Source: Nocardia seriolae NBRC 15557
Lineage (GTDB): Bacteria > Actinomycetota > Actinomycetes > Mycobacteriales > Mycobacteriaceae
DNA length: 64,000 bases
Direction: 5' to 3'
NCBI RefSeq assembly: GCF_007990715.1
Contig: NZ_BJWY01000012.1
Coordinates: 1 to 64,000, forward strand
The notes below the pieces were generated by a model. It was not told the origin of the DNA and did no database searches. It saw only the letters and a list, made by a program, of their open reading frames with translations. This document shows positions 24,401-28,200 of this stretch, one piece after another (the first letter of the stretch is position 1; every line of letters begins with the position of its first letter). The translations under genes were made by a program, and so were the position numbers.

Positions 24401-25271
24401 GACCGGATACGGTTCCACCGAACACCACGTCGGTGCGACCGCTGAACTGTGCCAGCATGAGCGCCCACACCGATTGCAGCACGGTGTGGAGAGTCACCCC
24501 GGCCGTGGCCGCCCGATCCGCCAGCTCGCGGGCGGCGGCGGGGTCGAGGGTGAGCCATTCCTCGGCCACGGCAGCGATTTCGGTCCGCGCGCCGGGTGCG
24601 AGCAGCATGGGTTCGGCACCGGCGAGGGTGGCGGACCAGGCGGCAGCTGCCGCATCGCGGTCACGGGTTTCCAACCACGCCAGGAAATCCCGATACGAGC
24701 CCGCCGGGGTGCGGGTGGCCGCGCCGTCGGCGTAGTGGGCGAACAGGTCGGTGACCAGCAGCGGGTAGGACCAGCCGTCGAGAATCACGTGGTGGTTGGT
24801 GAGGATCAGAGCCCAATCGCCGGTTCCCATTTCGGCGACCGTGAATCGCAGTAGCGGGGCCGATGCCGGATCGAAGCGACGCCGTTTCTCCGCGGCGGCC
24901 AGGTCGGTCAATCCCGCCTCGGCGTCGGGGGTCGTCGTGAGATCGACCATCTGCCAGGGCAGTTCGATGTCCTCGCAGACCACCGCGACGGTCCGGCCAC
25001 TGCCGACGGTGGTGAACGCGCTGCGCAGCATCGGATGCCGTCGCACCAGGGCGAGCGCGGCGGCGTGGAGACGGTCGGCATCCAGGCCGCCCGCCAGCCG
25101 CAGCACCAGTTGTGCGATATAGGCGTCGGGTGCGGCGGCCTCGGTCACGCCGGAGTGGAACAGAAGTCCGGCCTGCAATGGGGTCAACGGCCAGACATCG
25201 GTCAGGGACGGATACGCCCGGTCGAGCGCGGTCACCTCGGATCGGGTCAGCCGCACCAGATCGAAGTCGGA
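5475..25271 (-). CDS. Giant NRPS, distal part: modules 3-7 with thioesterase
   Basis: This stretch encodes about 6,598 residues: five complete modules and a thioesterase, in the order C-A-T, C-A-T-E, C-A-T-E, C-A-T, C-A-T-TE. Each A domain has the YTSGSTG ATP loop and each carrier a Ser in GGDS or GGNS. The C domains read HHVILDGWS-type (after E) or HHINADGFS (after T). No plausible ribosome site exists near its 5' end. The nearest in-frame GTG is at 25256, inside the interdomain linker. The frame stays open further upstream only as a shadow of the module-2 E domain. It is therefore best read as the continuation of the upstream NRPS frame, displaced by a one-base loss at 25272-25275. The assembly line works in the cytosol and releases the peptide through the TE. 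Confidence 0.93.
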   Translation of the reverse strand, partial: SDFDLVRLTRSEVTALDRAYPSLTDVWPLTPLQAGLLFHSGVTEAAAPDAYIAQLVLRLAGGLDADRLHAAALALVRRHPMLRSAFTTVGSGRTVAVVCEDIELPWQMVDLTTTPDAEAGLTDLAAAEKRRRFDPASAPLLRFTVAEMGTGDWALILTNHHVILDGWSYPLLVTDLFAHYADGAATRTPAGSYRDFLAWLETRDRDAAAAAWSATLAGAEPMLLAPGARTEIAAVAEEWLTLDPAAARELADRAATAGVTLHTVLQSVWALMLAQFSGRTDVVFGGTVSGRPGELPDADRAVGLFINTVPTRVRLDPAETAAQLWSRLHREQTALLDHHHLGLSEIHALTETDSLFDTVLVLESYPLDAQGIRNLTGRARLDLTEVIATDSTHYPLTCSVTVHDGMRIRLQYRPEVFDAATITAFAQRLHRVLHAVGTDPARPIRDIEALSESERERLRHWGAGSTLDLESLAPDIAPRDRTRPEGQGPTLPDLLSAAATANPDGCAVVDGDRRVSYRDLDERSDRLAQSLIRAGVSAGSVVAVGVPRSLEWVLSVWAVAKTGAAFLSLDPAHPHDRNLFMCTDSAVRMGITTSRYAHGLPQDGMSWLILDDFADTPDHPAGTVWAHTPMAGANAGTATGVAYIVYTSGSTGRPKGVEVTHSGLAGVCGAQRRRFGVGPDSRVLTVAARTFDAAIFELLLAISGAATLVVAPPEVYGGRELAELMRAERVSHAVLTPTVAAAMDPDGLDDLEVLTVAGEACPGGLVARWAGTDGAGRRRVHNLYGPAEATIWVTGTGELRAGEPIPMGSVIGGMSASVLDSWLRPVPVGVIGELYVSGPGVAQGYRGRAGLTAARFVADPFGAPGRRLYRTGDLVRWRAIECDSGTHGFEAAGSGSGAGVLEFVGRSDFQVKIRGQRLELGEIESALGEQDGVEQAVVLVRETATGARLVAYVVAAPDGAVDPVRVRRALAGRLPGFMVPDAITVLDALPLTLNGKLNKAALPEPATVRPGYRAAATPVEQIVASVYAEVLGMERVGVDDDFFVLGGNSLSATRLAARLADSLGTAVGVRDVFEASVVGELAARLGAADRAGVEGPRLRPWTRPERVPLSFAQQRMWFVNRLAPESASYSIPLVLRMSGDLESAALTAAITDVLTRHEVLRTRYPDVEGVPYQAVVPVAELAAAVDIDLTPRQVAQDRVTAAVAEVVAVGFDVAERIPLRARLFATAPRDFVLVMAVHHINADGFSITPLARDLAAAYAARCAGRQPDRSPLPVQYADYALWQRESLGAAADPDSLLARRIGYWTAQLSDLPEVVELPSDRPRPAVASHRGATCHCTVEPAVVSGLRELAADAGATTFMVFHAALAVLLSRLSGTADIAIGTPVSGRGSALLDDLVGMFVNTVVLRTRVDESLTVRELLARVRAVDLDAFAHAEIPFEHVVEAIDPPRSQAHNPLFQVMLAFHNLDPAAIELPGLAVTPSGADTGVERFDLTLTLADTPDADGAMRIDFGYATDLFDSATIIDFMARYVRVLRTLAADSAGAVRAIDILSDRERPTLETWGRTGIPDLGHLAPDATLPELLAAAVAANPDGIAVVDGERRISYRELDARSNRLARFLIGYGIGPESVLALALPRSLDWVLAVWAITKTGAGFLSLDPGHPLDRNRFLCADSGVRLGITLGGHATALPGEDVTWLIADDPAVVSEIRKHTPVAVTASDRRGVLRAGDIAYVVYTSGSTGRPKGVAVTHAGLTAVAAAHLHSYAITPDSRVLGVSARTFDAAMLEILLAVPVGATLILAPEDAYGGPALTALLREQRITHAFLTPSVVASLDPDGLDELQALTVGGEGYSARLVERWSRTDAGGSRRFFNTYGPTETTVIAMISRELRAGDPLELGTGIPGIGVLVLDGALRPVPVGVVGELYLSGAGLARGYRGRAGRTASRFVANPLGTAGDRLYRTGDLVRWVAGETGSGTLVFVGRSDFQVKVRGQRLEPGEVETALCELDGVRQAVVVVHDSGSAVRLVGYVAAATGSTLRPETIRAAVGDRLPRYLVPDVIMVLGELPLTATGKVDRRALPEPVFAPQEFRAPTTPGEEVVAGVFAEVLGVERVGADDDFFALGGDSIVSIQVVAKARARGVCFGPRDVFEQRTPARLAACAQTSDTGGASLAELAGGGTGELPLLPVARWMVEWGKGFERFDQHVVLRLPAGVDEAELVATIAAVLDRHDMLRSRLRCDDAGQWSMQVAPAGAVDPAWLLHRRALAADIDVHTAAGRAAVTEIAAAELDSALDWLDPRDGVMVQFVWLEPAADVPGWLLVVAHHLVVDGVSWRVLVPDLMTALTQSAAGGVPALAPVGTSMRRWAHGLAAAACEPMRVGALDFWRSVVAGTDPAVGGRELDAELDTAATLEQIELRLPEPVTRALLSRVPAAFHGGVNDGLLAGLAVAVRMWRARRGIDDPSVLIRLEGHGREEQVVPGADLSRTVGWFTSMFPVRFDLDGIDIEDAAGDAVAAAVFSVKETLRSIPDKGIGYGLLRYLNDETAALLPDRMPGRIGFNYLGRVSRADVGADGPHGGLGELTAAPDPDMPVTAALDISAIVIDDRLQAAICFPRTLLDPAEVRELADLWTQALTAIAEHAETPGAGGHSPSDFALAPLTPADIADLEHAHPALTDVWPVTPLQAGLLFHAHLAGADAEPDSYVAQLILHLSGGLDPARLREAATALVGRHEGLRTSFTTVGNGATVAVVRGDAELSWHVVDLTDSADPASALTELSAAEKAAPFDLATGPLLRFTVARLAADRWALILTNHHIILDGWSYPLLLTELFTAYTGQHPGRTPGSYRDYLAWLTTRDHEAALSAWDVALDGIEPTLIAGDTGPGGTAIAERTLALDESGTRALVSAAAAAGVTVNTVLQSAWALLMAQLTGRTDVVFGATVSGRPGELPDAAHTLGLFINTIPTRVRLDPAETVAALWTRLHREQAALLDHHHVGLRDIHARTGTDALFDTLMVLESYPVDLNDIEHALGDGDLAITRVNAADATHYPLSCTAMLRDTLGILLQYRAELFDADTVAAHGERLRAILLAIAGDPSAPVRDIGRDLDRAGLLGFETLGETATAPMMLTDVLASAVAADPDGEAVADADVRITYRELEQRSNRLARFLIGRGAGPETVVAVGLPRSADWVAAVWAIAKTGAAFVSVDPAHPAERNRFVCTDSGARCVLTRGEFELEVPGVESIRIDELDLSELDATTSIEGDRAAAPHPANVAYVVYTSGSTGQPKGVAVSHSGLAALVADHRRRCAVEPRSRVLAVAARTFDAAILELLLAASGGATLVVAPPEVYGGAPLWELLREQRVSHAFLTPAVAASLDSAGLDELRVVLTGGDRFGPQLVSRWAGTDTARRRRVHNLYGPAEATIWVTGAPLLPGRPIEIGGPIAGTAVAVLDPWLRPVPAGAVGELYLAGPDVARGYRGRAGLTASRFIANPFGAPGGLLYRTGDLVRVGIGETGSGTLEFVGRSDFQVKVRGQRLEPGEIEAALCEQTGIEQAVVVVHTPASGTGGRLVGYVTLAAGCTLDGELIRHRVGQRLPAYLVPDAVMVLEELPLTATGKIDRRNLPEPVFPHTDFRAPATPVEELLAEVFAQVLGLERVGADDDFFALGGDSIVSIQLVTQARGRGVVFGPRDVFEQRTPARLARRARSAEDGTSGLAELPGGGVGELPLWPVARWMVEWGGGFDRFDQHVVLRLLARVSGPQMSAALGALLDHHDMLRSRLRRGDTGEWSMLVAPAGNVDIAEVLRRRVIEGEVETEAGRRRVADIAAAELDSALGELDPQGGSVIRCVLLEPANGAPGWLLVVAHHLVIDGVSWRVLVPDLMTALEQLTAGSTPALAPVGTSMRAWAHGLAAAASDPIRLGELDFWRAMASGPDPVLGARELDPARDTAATLDQVSVELTEPVTRALTVRIPAIFHGGVTDGLLAGLAVAVRIWRARRGLDEPSVLIRMEGHGREEQVVPGAELSRTVGWFTTMFPVRLDLPGEDPGIDTETMAAAVFSVKETLRSIPDKGIGYGLLRYLDTETAAALPDRMPGRIGFNYLGRVSGPASDGIDGGLGELAVPADPAMAVTVPLDVSALVIDDRLRATFRFPRTLLDAADIEELARLWTDAVTALADLAETPGAGGHSPSDFDLITLTRPEIAALERAYPALSEIWPVTPLQAGLLFHARLAEGSDGIDLYAAQVVLRLSGAADPERLRDAAAALVRCNPVLRTAFTTTTAGTSVAVVCDDIELPWRVVDLTDHADPEASLAELAAADKAERFDLTVAPLLRFTVARLGEERWALILTDHHVILDGWSWPLLVTDLFTRYATGTDTGVAAGSYRDFLAWSATHDHAAARSAWSAALAGAEPSLIAEPATGTGAVVDRSVVIDAAGTAALQAAAAAAGVTLNTVLQSAWALIVAQLTGRADVVFGTTVSGRPADLPGAERTIGLFINTIPTRVRLEPGETVTALWTRIHAEQAALLDHQHLGLAEIHELTGNETLFDTAMVLESYPVDAQHVQQVAGHGDLELTGVDGTDSTHYPLSCTVIAQDTLRIRLQYRPDLLDAEPVDALAGRLRVLLGALARDPSLPVREIPVLPDAERAVLLDEWGRGGADPLGGTGMPGATLPELLAAAAAANPGGKAVIEGDDTMSYRALDERSNRLAHHLIGCGAGPETVVAIGLPRSSEWVVAVWAVAKTGAAFLTVDPAHPLEHNGFVCADSAAHLGITVAGAAGALPDADMAWLILDDPQTAAMIGDCPAGPVTDAVRGRAIRPQNTAYVIYTSGSTGRPKGVAVTHAGLAALVSDHAGHCAVEPDSAVLAVAARTFDAALLELLLAMSGGAALVVAPPDVYGGPALWELMRGRRVSHAFLTPAVAASVDPAGLDDLRVLLTGGDQSSSQLVTSWWGTDAAGLRRMRNMYGPAEATIWVTGSELSPGKQIGIGGPITGMRALVLDGWLRPVPVGVVGELYVSGPGVAQGYRGRAGLTASRFVADPFGTAGARLYRTGDLVRWMADDAAGESGSRTGQLVYVGRSDFQVKVRGQRLELGEVESALRELDGVGQAVVVQRSGESDTAGARLAGYVVPRPGHQRDPETLRRTVAQRLPRFMVPDAILVLAALPLTSSGKVDRKALPEPVFATREFREPATPIERTVARIFADVLRIERVGREDDFFELGGNSLSATRLAARLADEVGVPVTVRDAFDATTVGDLALVLSARIQSSAGTRDLAGIGGGVARIGRPRLEPKARPDRVPLSFAQQRMWFVNRFAPESVSYSIPLVLRLSGALDVEALSAAIMDVLSRHEVLRTRYPDIDGVPYQVVVPVAELADAVDIDLAPRVVDEPKTADAVADVMSTGFDVAERIPLRVRLLSVGPEEFVLVMVVHHINADGFSMAPLARDLASAYAARCGGRQPDRSPLPVQYADYALWQRELLGSADDPESTLSQQLRYWRDRLAELPETLELPADRPRPAVASHRGETYAFTVEPAVVSGLQRVAQTHGCTVFMVFHTALAIVLSRLSGSTDIAVGTPVSGRGSAQLDDLVGMFVNTIVLRTRVDESLSFADLLARVRGTDLDAFAHAEIPFEQVVEALDPPRSQAHHPLFQVMLGFHNLDRVRLELPGVAVSTSGADIGVERFDLTLTLTDTPDERGAIPVGMSYATDLFDPPTIMRLARRLRKVLTAVAEDPSRVVRDIDILSVRERERVLHEWGGADRADAPAVTLPALLAAAVAANPEGVAVVDGGRAVSYRELDERSNRLARQLIGLGAGPEQVVAIGLPRSFEWVLAVWAIAKTGAAFVSVDPAHPADRNGYVCADAGVHVGITTDRCRAALPSDVVWTVPGGPEAASLSNGGARSGVEPNTVPHTGNTAYVMYTSGSTGRPKGVEVTHAGLAALVADHRGRSAPQPDSRVLAVAARTFDAALLELLLAVSAGATLVVAPADVYGGQPLTDLMRAGRVTHAFLTPSVALTLDPAELEQLRVVLTGGDRCPQRLVTQWSGTDAAGLRRVHNLYGPAEATIWATGAELTPDAAIEIGGPIAGTAAVVLDAFLRPVPVGVVGELYLSGPGVARGYRGRAGLTAARFIADPFGAPGERLYRTGDLVRWATDETGRGTGTLVFVGRSDFQVKVRGQRLEPGEVEAALTELPGIEQAAVTVSDGEKTGAATRLVGYVVPEPGFAADPAAIRRTLAERLPGYLVPDVVRVLGELPLTATGKVDRRALPEPDPAPRRFRAPATQLEQLVADIFAEVLEADRVGADDDFFALGGNSLTAVRVVSLIRSRTGRQLQFSQLFSDATPAAVARILERGPGAMDISLGVLTPLCSTGTRPPLFCVHPGGGLAWVYGSLVAHLDADRPVYGLQDPHIVADETRPESIAAYADRYVRELLDRFPGTTYNLLGWSLGGQIAHAMAVRLQELGHPVGLLAIVDATPEAGVAETPDPTPQDVATAVTRILAGWQHALDLTEIPDIDNLDDFYALLTDRIAATGILTPQQIRRVLDSFSRPLPYTPGRYSGDAVLFTAAREPGRHHLTETWRPHITGRIDRISIDEWHTGMLNAERAAQIAPLLNSRLRLPAADE
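9490..12755 (-). other. NRPS module 6: DCL-type C, A, T
   Basis: The DCL condensation domain (HHVILDGWS) accepts the D residue from module 5. The code D-A-L-F-L-G-M-I-W-K differs from modules 2, 5 and 7 only at position 322. The GGNS carrier lacks an epimerase, giving an L residue. Confidence 0.8.
12756..17340 (-). other. NRPS module 5: DCL-type C, A, T, E
   Basis: A DCL condensation domain (VTPLQAGLLFHA, HHIILDGWS) follows the module-4 epimerase as expected. The code D-A-L-F-L-G-L-I-W-K is identical to modules 2 and 7. A GGDS carrier and E domain predict a D residue. Confidence 0.8.
17341..21989 (-). other. NRPS module 4: LCL-type C, A, T, E
   Basis: LSFAQQRMWFV and HHINADGFS mark an LCL condensation domain. 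The code is D-A-L-F-T-G-T-V-I-K, and motif A5 is TYGPTETT rather than the LYGPAEAT of its neighbours, so this is the most distinct A domain after module 1. A GGDS carrier and an E domain give a D residue at position 4. Confidence 0.8.
21990..25271 (-). other. NRPS module 3: DCL-type C, A, T
   Basis: The C domain opens with LTPLQAGLLFHS and HHVILDGWS, the DCL class, matching the D-residue made by module 2. The code is D-A-F-V-T-A-L-I-W-K, unlike the other modules at four to five positions. The carrier is GGNS type without epimerase, so residue 3 stays L. Confidence 0.8.

Positions 25272-28200: not shown

What the first reader, a model, noticed from the sequence alone, without database searches (positions are those of the whole stretch)
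25240..25290. One missing G splits a 9,498-residue NRPS at an E/C junction
Directly seen: the same linker DNA at 12753-12757 and 17339-17343 has five G, here four. With one base restored, 33970 to 5475 becomes exactly 9,499 codons and the linker reads SPSDFDL like its paralogues. No ribosome site serves a separate downstream protein. The options are assembly error, a recent inactivating mutation, slippage in the C run of the transcript, or a nascent split into two proteins. If the frame is whole, this would be one of the larger single-chain NRPSs.
Basis: partly seen in the sequence, partly recalled or inferred. Interest (0 to 1): 0.85.

Follow-up and report, generated by a model that had tools for sequence, protein, structure and literature searches.

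The report
One-base loss splits giant peptide synthetase
In this Nocardia genome a peptide-making enzyme gene that most relatives checked carry as one giant unbroken frame is one DNA letter short at the joint between the second and third of its seven modules, so it now reads as two frames; the break is probably real and recent, and it would likely disconnect the assembly line of a predicted lipopeptide.

Summary
On the minus strand the frame breaks at a four-C run (25275-25272): a 2,907-codon NRPS ORF stops at 25247, the rest of the frame runs on to 5475. In 13 of 13 orthologues fetched from the genus the spacing across this joint is a multiple of three; here it is 44 nt. Ten of the 13 are one frame of 9,440-9,781 codons. 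It is probably no error of this assembly: a near-identical protein record, P0121 (6,593 aa, longest contig 8.13 Mb), starts exactly at the cut (GTG 25256) and differs at four residues, where it has the orthologues' commonest residue. The core motifs of all seven modules are present and no second lesion is seen, so the break is young or tolerated. The joint resembles a cis-COM scaffold; the cut lies in its lid, about 20 residues before the site where natural subunits part, leaving the docking helix on the second protein. Most likely a recent lesion that uncouples the line; a working two-protein split is the main rival. It is not a size record (PMC4035055).

The parts
25247..33970 (-). Upstream NRPS ORF, 2,907 codons, TTG start; modules 1-2: C-A(with FkbM-type methyltransferase)-T, C-A-T-E
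   Evidence: start aligned with M or L in 10 of 10 orthologues
25272..25275 (-). Run of four C where the frame breaks, inside the lid of the E/C (cis-COM-like) linker
25247..25249 (-). TGA that ends the upstream ORF, after seven off-frame residues (PTSIWCG)
25254..25256 (-). GTG, candidate start of the downstream protein, overlapping the upstream stop by 10 nt; start of public record P0121
5475..25256 (-). Downstream NRPS protein, 6,593 aa from GTG 25256; modules 3-7: C-A-T, C-A-T-E, C-A-T-E, C-A-T, C-A-T-TE
17340..17344 (-). Five-C run in the second E/C linker (module 4 to 5), in frame
12753..12757 (-). Five-C run in the third E/C linker (module 5 to 6), in frame
34029..35354 (-). Carrier protein fused to a luciferase-like monooxygenase, just upstream; found beside the NRPS in 6 of 6 relatives checked
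35351..37144 (-). Fatty acyl-AMP ligase-like AMP-binding enzyme, predicted to supply the lipid starter; found in 6 of 6 relatives checked

Best explanation
A gene that reads as one unbroken seven-module NRPS frame in 10 of 13 relatives is here one base short in the linker between module 2 (ending in an E domain) and module 3 (starting with a C domain), so the first chain ends there; this is likely a real, recent mutation shared within the species, and it is predicted to uncouple the assembly line. Shown: the deficit, the stop, the unbroken frame in relatives, the core motifs on both sides. Shown by a public record: a downstream protein that begins at the same GTG and is not identical to the window's. 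Inferred: the break was fixed recently in the species (probably N. seriolae, a fish pathogen). Inferred: two proteins of 2,907 and 6,593 residues would be made, the second only by translational coupling at the GTG that overlaps the stop. Inferred: the linker is a cis-COM scaffold; the cut in its lid leaves E without most of the lid and without the helix, and leaves the helix on C, where it is predicted to fill its own docking groove, so the acyl-dipeptide with its D-residue would no longer be handed over efficiently and the predicted lipoheptapeptide would be lost or strongly reduced.
For: In-frame spacing in 13 of 13 relatives against 44 nt here. Unbroken frames of 9,440-9,781 codons in 10 of 13, each with seven A3 motifs and a TE motif. 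P0121 starts at the same GTG and has the orthologues' commonest residue (7 to 10 of 10) at the four sites where the window has one seen in 0 of 10, so it comes from another assembly; longest contig 8,129,380. PMC6436429 (section 3.6 read) reports two consecutively numbered large NRPS genes without known homologues, their structure conserved in two further N. seriolae genomes, plausibly this locus. 30 of 30 E/C linkers in the ten unbroken relatives fit the lid and helix spacing of the BacC cis-COM domain (residue numbers from PMC12402864, section 6 read), and a model of the downstream C domain aligns from its first residue to BacC 5070, the register read from sequence. PMC12402864 (passages): deleting the TycA donor helix abrogated product; deleting much of seam and lid, or lid and helix, in cis left 5% and 7%.
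Against: No sign of decay: the core motifs scanned for are all present; the first/second- to third-position rate ratio of the window branch, 0.263 upstream and 0.243 downstream, lies inside the range of relatives (though the upstream value is above its two nearest, 0.178 and 0.193); one lesion is seen against about 758 expected had the whole terminal branch been neutral. This also fits a working split. PMC7496407 (passage) infers that E and C can associate without docking parts, and PMC12402864 reports milder changes that kept 54-88%. The cut falls in a linker, where damage is least, while only 3 of 35 runs of five or more in the gene lie in E/C linkers. No product or protein was measured. P0019, the upstream record, ends about 106 residues before the cut, so the upstream stop is not independently seen.
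Confidence: 0.55

Rival explanations
1. Nascent working split: both proteins are made, the second by termination-reinitiation at GTG 25256, and E2 and C3 find each other without covalent link, so the peptide is still made by two subunits.
For: Core motifs present on either side; rate ratios ordinary and no further lesion; GTG overlaps the stop by 10 nt; cut in a linker; PMC7496407 infers association of E and C without docking parts (passage); PMC12402864 proposes that trans-COM arose from cis-COM by gene splitting (passage).
Against: Cut is in the lid, not at the helix end where natural trans-COM pairs part; no donor helix on the first protein, and the helix of the second is predicted to sit on its own C domain; poor ribosome site; PMC12402864: donor helix deletion abrogated product.
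Confidence: 0.27
2. Sequencing or assembly error: the true sequence is in frame as in relatives.
For: Window is a 284-contig draft whose downstream part has four residues seen in 0 of 10 orthologues and not in P0121; the relative G075 shows two single-base gaps in the same E domain where the near relative P0122 (94-96% identical over most of its length) is continuous.
Against: P0121, from a different assembly and with a contig of 8.13 Mb, starts at the same GTG; a gene caller would hardly start there if the frame were open upstream. An error in a four-base run is unusual for short reads (general knowledge; the technology used here is not known).
Confidence: 0.1
3. Slippage: ribosome or polymerase shifts at the C run and makes some full-length chain.
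For: A one-base backward shift at this place would lead into the open downstream frame; rate ratios remain ordinary.
Against: Run is only four bases, the codons do not form an X XXY YYZ heptamer (sequence), downstream RNA folds no better than shuffles (z 0.47), and no relative of 13 needs a shift at this joint.
Confidence: 0.08

Closest known systems
cis-COM scaffold of E-COM-C (BacC modules 4-5, PDB 9rde; PMC12402864)
   Same: Lid S/T-P-S/A-D-F/L and helix hydrophobics at the same spacing as P5063, D5065, L5076, I5079, Y5083; the predicted C domain with its N-terminal helix aligns to 9rde from residue 5070
   Different: Here the chain is cut in the lid
trans-COM docking pairs such as TycA/TycB (PMC12402864)
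   Same: An E-ending protein followed by a C-starting protein
   Different: [quoted passage not shown] the helix is on the second protein; no matched docking ends
The orthologous single-chain NRPS of Nocardia terrae (G160) and nine other unbroken relatives
   Same: G160's protein aligns in two main blocks that meet at the break; seven A3 motifs and a TE motif in 10 of 10, three E/C linkers in 10 of 10
   Different: One frame, no break between modules 2 and 3
Two large NRPS genes OJF82997/OJF82998 of N. seriolae CK-14008 (PMC6436429, section 3.6)
   Same: Large NRPS genes with consecutive numbers and no known product, near a cluster scored as mycobactin-like; likely the same locus
   Different: Reported as two genes; 'frameshift' and 'pseudogene' occur nowhere in that paper's main text

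Membership tests
Seven-module NRPS of Nocardia (this orthologue family) | Seven C-A-T modules, E in modules 2, 4 and 5, terminal TE | tested here: met
   Pfam and motif scans of the pieces: 10 HHxxxDG, 7 each of A3, A5, A8, A10 and T, 1 TE
Seven-module NRPS of Nocardia (this orthologue family) | One continuous reading frame | tested here: not met
   44 nt across the joint, stop at 25247
cis-COM (E-COM-C) scaffold | Lid with P and D, helix hydrophobics at +14, +17, +21 from the residue before P | tested here: met
   30 of 30 E/C linkers of ten relatives; the lid pattern was the search pattern, the helix positions the test; 33 hits, 3 dropped (two elsewhere, one overlapping a true linker hit). 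In the window: J1 V-L-Y (downstream piece), J3 I-L-Y, J2 I-L-H
trans-COM docking pair | Seam, lid and helix at the C-terminus of the E-bearing subunit | tested here: not met
   Upstream protein ends GGHSPPTSIWCG
trans-COM docking pair | Acceptor hand at the N-terminus of the C-bearing subunit | tested here: inconclusive
   [not shown]
trans-COM docking pair | Split at the end of the COM helix | tested here: not met
   Last in-frame lid residue corresponds to P5063, the restart to 5069, the helix to about 5073-5083
Decayed pseudogene | Further stops or frameshifts, relaxed selection | tested here: not met
   None seen in 28.5 kb; rate ratios ordinary; so at most a very young pseudogene
Decayed pseudogene | No product | not testable with these tools
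   Needs metabolomics and proteomics
Programmed -1 frameshift | Slippery heptamer and downstream structure | tested here: not met
   Codons CAT TCC CCT CCG; fold z 0.47
Assembly artefact | Absent from other assemblies of the species | tested here: not met
   P0121; but no listed hit was longer than 7,939 aa, so an unbroken same-species copy could have been missed

The most novel reading that the evidence does not exclude
A natural snapshot of how NRPS subunits are born: one base lost in the lid of a cis-COM scaffold has turned a single giant synthetase into two coupled subunits that still pass the chain from E to C without a docking pair, with the docking helix left on the acceptor side.
Probability: 0.22. 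Interest if true: 0.75.

Novelty: new member of a known kind. Interest (0 to 1): 0.42.

Why it matters
It is a clean natural test of whether an E-C joint needs a covalent COM scaffold: same enzyme, whole in most relatives, cut in the lid here, no other damage seen. If the peptide is still made, subunit splitting can start at a place that known docking pairs do not use; if not, it marks the recent loss of a lipopeptide in a probable fish pathogen, and it suggests that two 'NRPS genes' in its annotations are halves of one.

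Tried and rejected
Record-size NRPS: rejected; G119 has at least 13,333 open codons with NRPS motifs and PMC4035055 (passages) reports NRPS genes with 12 modules. Hot-spot of breaks in E2: G075 and G027 also have lesions near module 2, but G075's two gaps are absent from its near relative P0122 and G027 has lesions along its length. Slippage by structure: no signal. Species name by a 16S primer: 0 of 148 genomes matched, own included, so the test says nothing. The species call rests on a contig length (8,129,380 against 8.129 Mb for strain AHLQ20-01 in PMC13186243, Table 1 read), on the best orthologue by identity (G093, 79%; its contig C190 of 10,044 bases has the contig length of the N. 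concava record P0002; PMC6436429 names N. concava as nearest to N. seriolae) and on the two NRPS genes of PMC6436429; it stays an inference. Substrate codes were looked at by eye and not used. Literature: none of the titles and abstract openings listed (capped lists) describes this frameshift; only open-licence papers are held. Of PMC4293623 only the listing was seen (one search failed); PMC10586126 was read (part 1 of 2), and PMC5336288 and PMC12153302 in passages, without bearing on the break.

Full report
What is there. On the minus strand, an NRPS ORF begins at TTG 33970 and ends at TGA 25249-25247 (2,907 codons); another frame is open from 26351 and ends at 5475. Homology passes from the first frame to the second in the linker between the E domain of module 2 and the C domain of module 3. 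At 25275-25272 there are four C; the two other E/C linkers of the same gene have five (12757-12753, 17344-17340). Scans of the pieces give seven modules: C-A(MT)-T, C-A-T-E, C-A-T, C-A-T-E, C-A-T-E, C-A-T, C-A-T-TE, with ten HHxxxDG motifs, seven each of the A3, A5, A8, A10 and T motifs, and the TE motif. Upstream lie a carrier-monooxygenase and a fatty acyl-AMP ligase-like gene, found beside the NRPS in 6 of 6 relatives checked, so a lipid-started heptapeptide is predicted.

Relatives. A 1,201-base probe over the joint matched 15 of 150 genomes of the genus at E 1e-80 or better, the own genome included. One of the 14 others, G119, carries a different and longer NRPS-like frame. In the other 13, the distance between fixed blocks on either side of the joint is 45 nt in 12 and 48 nt in one, with no stop; in the window it is 44 nt with a stop. 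Ten of the 13 read as one frame of 9,440 to 9,781 codons from stop to stop: G160 (contig length 2,064,908, that of the N. terrae record NZ_WRPP01000001), G062, G173, G108, G145, G126, G172, G063, G019 and G150; each has seven A3 motifs and a TE motif. The other three: G093 is cut by contig ends but open across the joint; G075 has two single-base gaps in the E domain; G027 has in-frame stops, one gap and a missing end. The base that the window lacks differs among relatives, so the run is not a conserved slippery tract and the lost letter cannot be named.

Is it an error? The protein database holds P0121: 6,593 aa, 17 member sequences, 3 contigs, longest 8,129,380 bases. It begins exactly at GTG 25256 and differs from the window's translation at four residues besides the start. 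There the window has R, A, A and F, seen in 0 of 10 orthologues, and P0121 has L, E, E and C, seen in 9, 10, 7 and 9 of 10. So P0121 comes from another assembly, probably a more accurate one there, and that assembly starts a protein at the cut, which a gene caller would hardly do were the frame open upstream. The upstream record P0019 (2,799 aa, 14 members) differs at five residues besides the start: at two the window's R is seen in 0 of 10 orthologues, at the other three P0019 has the rarer or unseen residue; it ends about 106 residues short and does not test the stop. No listed hit was longer than 7,939 aa although relatives encode longer proteins, so an unbroken same-species copy could be missed.

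Which species? An 8.129-Mb complete genome of N. seriolae (AHLQ20-01) is listed in PMC13186243 (Table 1). PMC6436429 (section 3.6) describes in N. seriolae two consecutively numbered large NRPS genes of unknown product about 10 kb from a mycobactin-like cluster, conserved in EM150506 and UTF1, all PacBio genomes, and names N. concava as nearest. The best orthologue here by identity over the probe is G093 (79%), whose contig C190 has 10,044 bases, the contig length of the N. concava record P0002. I take the window as probably N. seriolae; this is inference.

How old? On fixed trees of the upstream piece (2,757 codons) and the downstream piece (6,366 codons), the ratio of first-and-second to third position branch length for the window is 0.263 and 0.243, inside the range of relatives (0.178-0.295 and 0.202-0.295); the upstream value is above those of its two nearest relatives (0.178, 0.193). 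About 758 stops and indels would be expected had the whole terminal branch been neutral, at an assumed 5% indel share; one lesion is seen. That bounds neutral time to roughly 0.4% of the branch, or the gene is still useful.

How it works. I favour a recent lesion that uncouples the line: deleting the donor helix of TycA abrogated product, and deleting much of seam and lid, or lid and helix, in cis left 5% and 7% (PMC12402864). Against this, milder changes there kept 54-88%, PMC7496407 infers that E and C can associate without docking parts, the gene shows no decay, and a GTG overlaps the stop, so a working two-protein synthetase stays at about one in four. Slippage has no support. Error is possible but less likely given P0121.

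Verdict. Real observation, correctly read as one ancestral chain; ordinary in kind (a one-base frameshift), unusual in place. It is not a size record.

Noticed in passing
L161-L162 (G119:C9:60001-100000): A single reading frame open over the whole 40 kb fetched, at least 13,333 codons with NRPS motifs (13 HHxxxDG, 10 T): a larger NRPS, perhaps the 12-module kind of PMC4035055.
   Followed up: partly
L157-L158 (G075:C1): Two single-base gaps in the E domain of module 2 in a one-contig 10-Mb genome; the near relative protein P0122 (94-96% identical over most of its length) is continuous there, so these look like assembly errors or strain-specific lesions.
   Followed up: partly
L110-L111 (G027:C13): Orthologue with three in-frame stops, one single-base gap and homology ending near residue 7,339 of 9,692: a decayed copy, so the gene seems dispensable in the genus.
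   Followed up: partly
window 30416-30985: FkbM-type methyltransferase domain (PF05050) inserted in the first A domain between motifs A8 and A10.
   Followed up: no
window 5475-25256: Four residues (1932, 2370, 2758, 3375 of the downstream protein) deviate from P0121 and are seen in 0 of 10 orthologues; each is explicable by one transversion: possible base errors in this draft.
   Followed up: partly
window 39272-40417: Acyl-CoA dehydrogenase 99% identical over 195 residues to the copy in G093 while three neighbouring genes are 75-83% identical.
   Followed up: no
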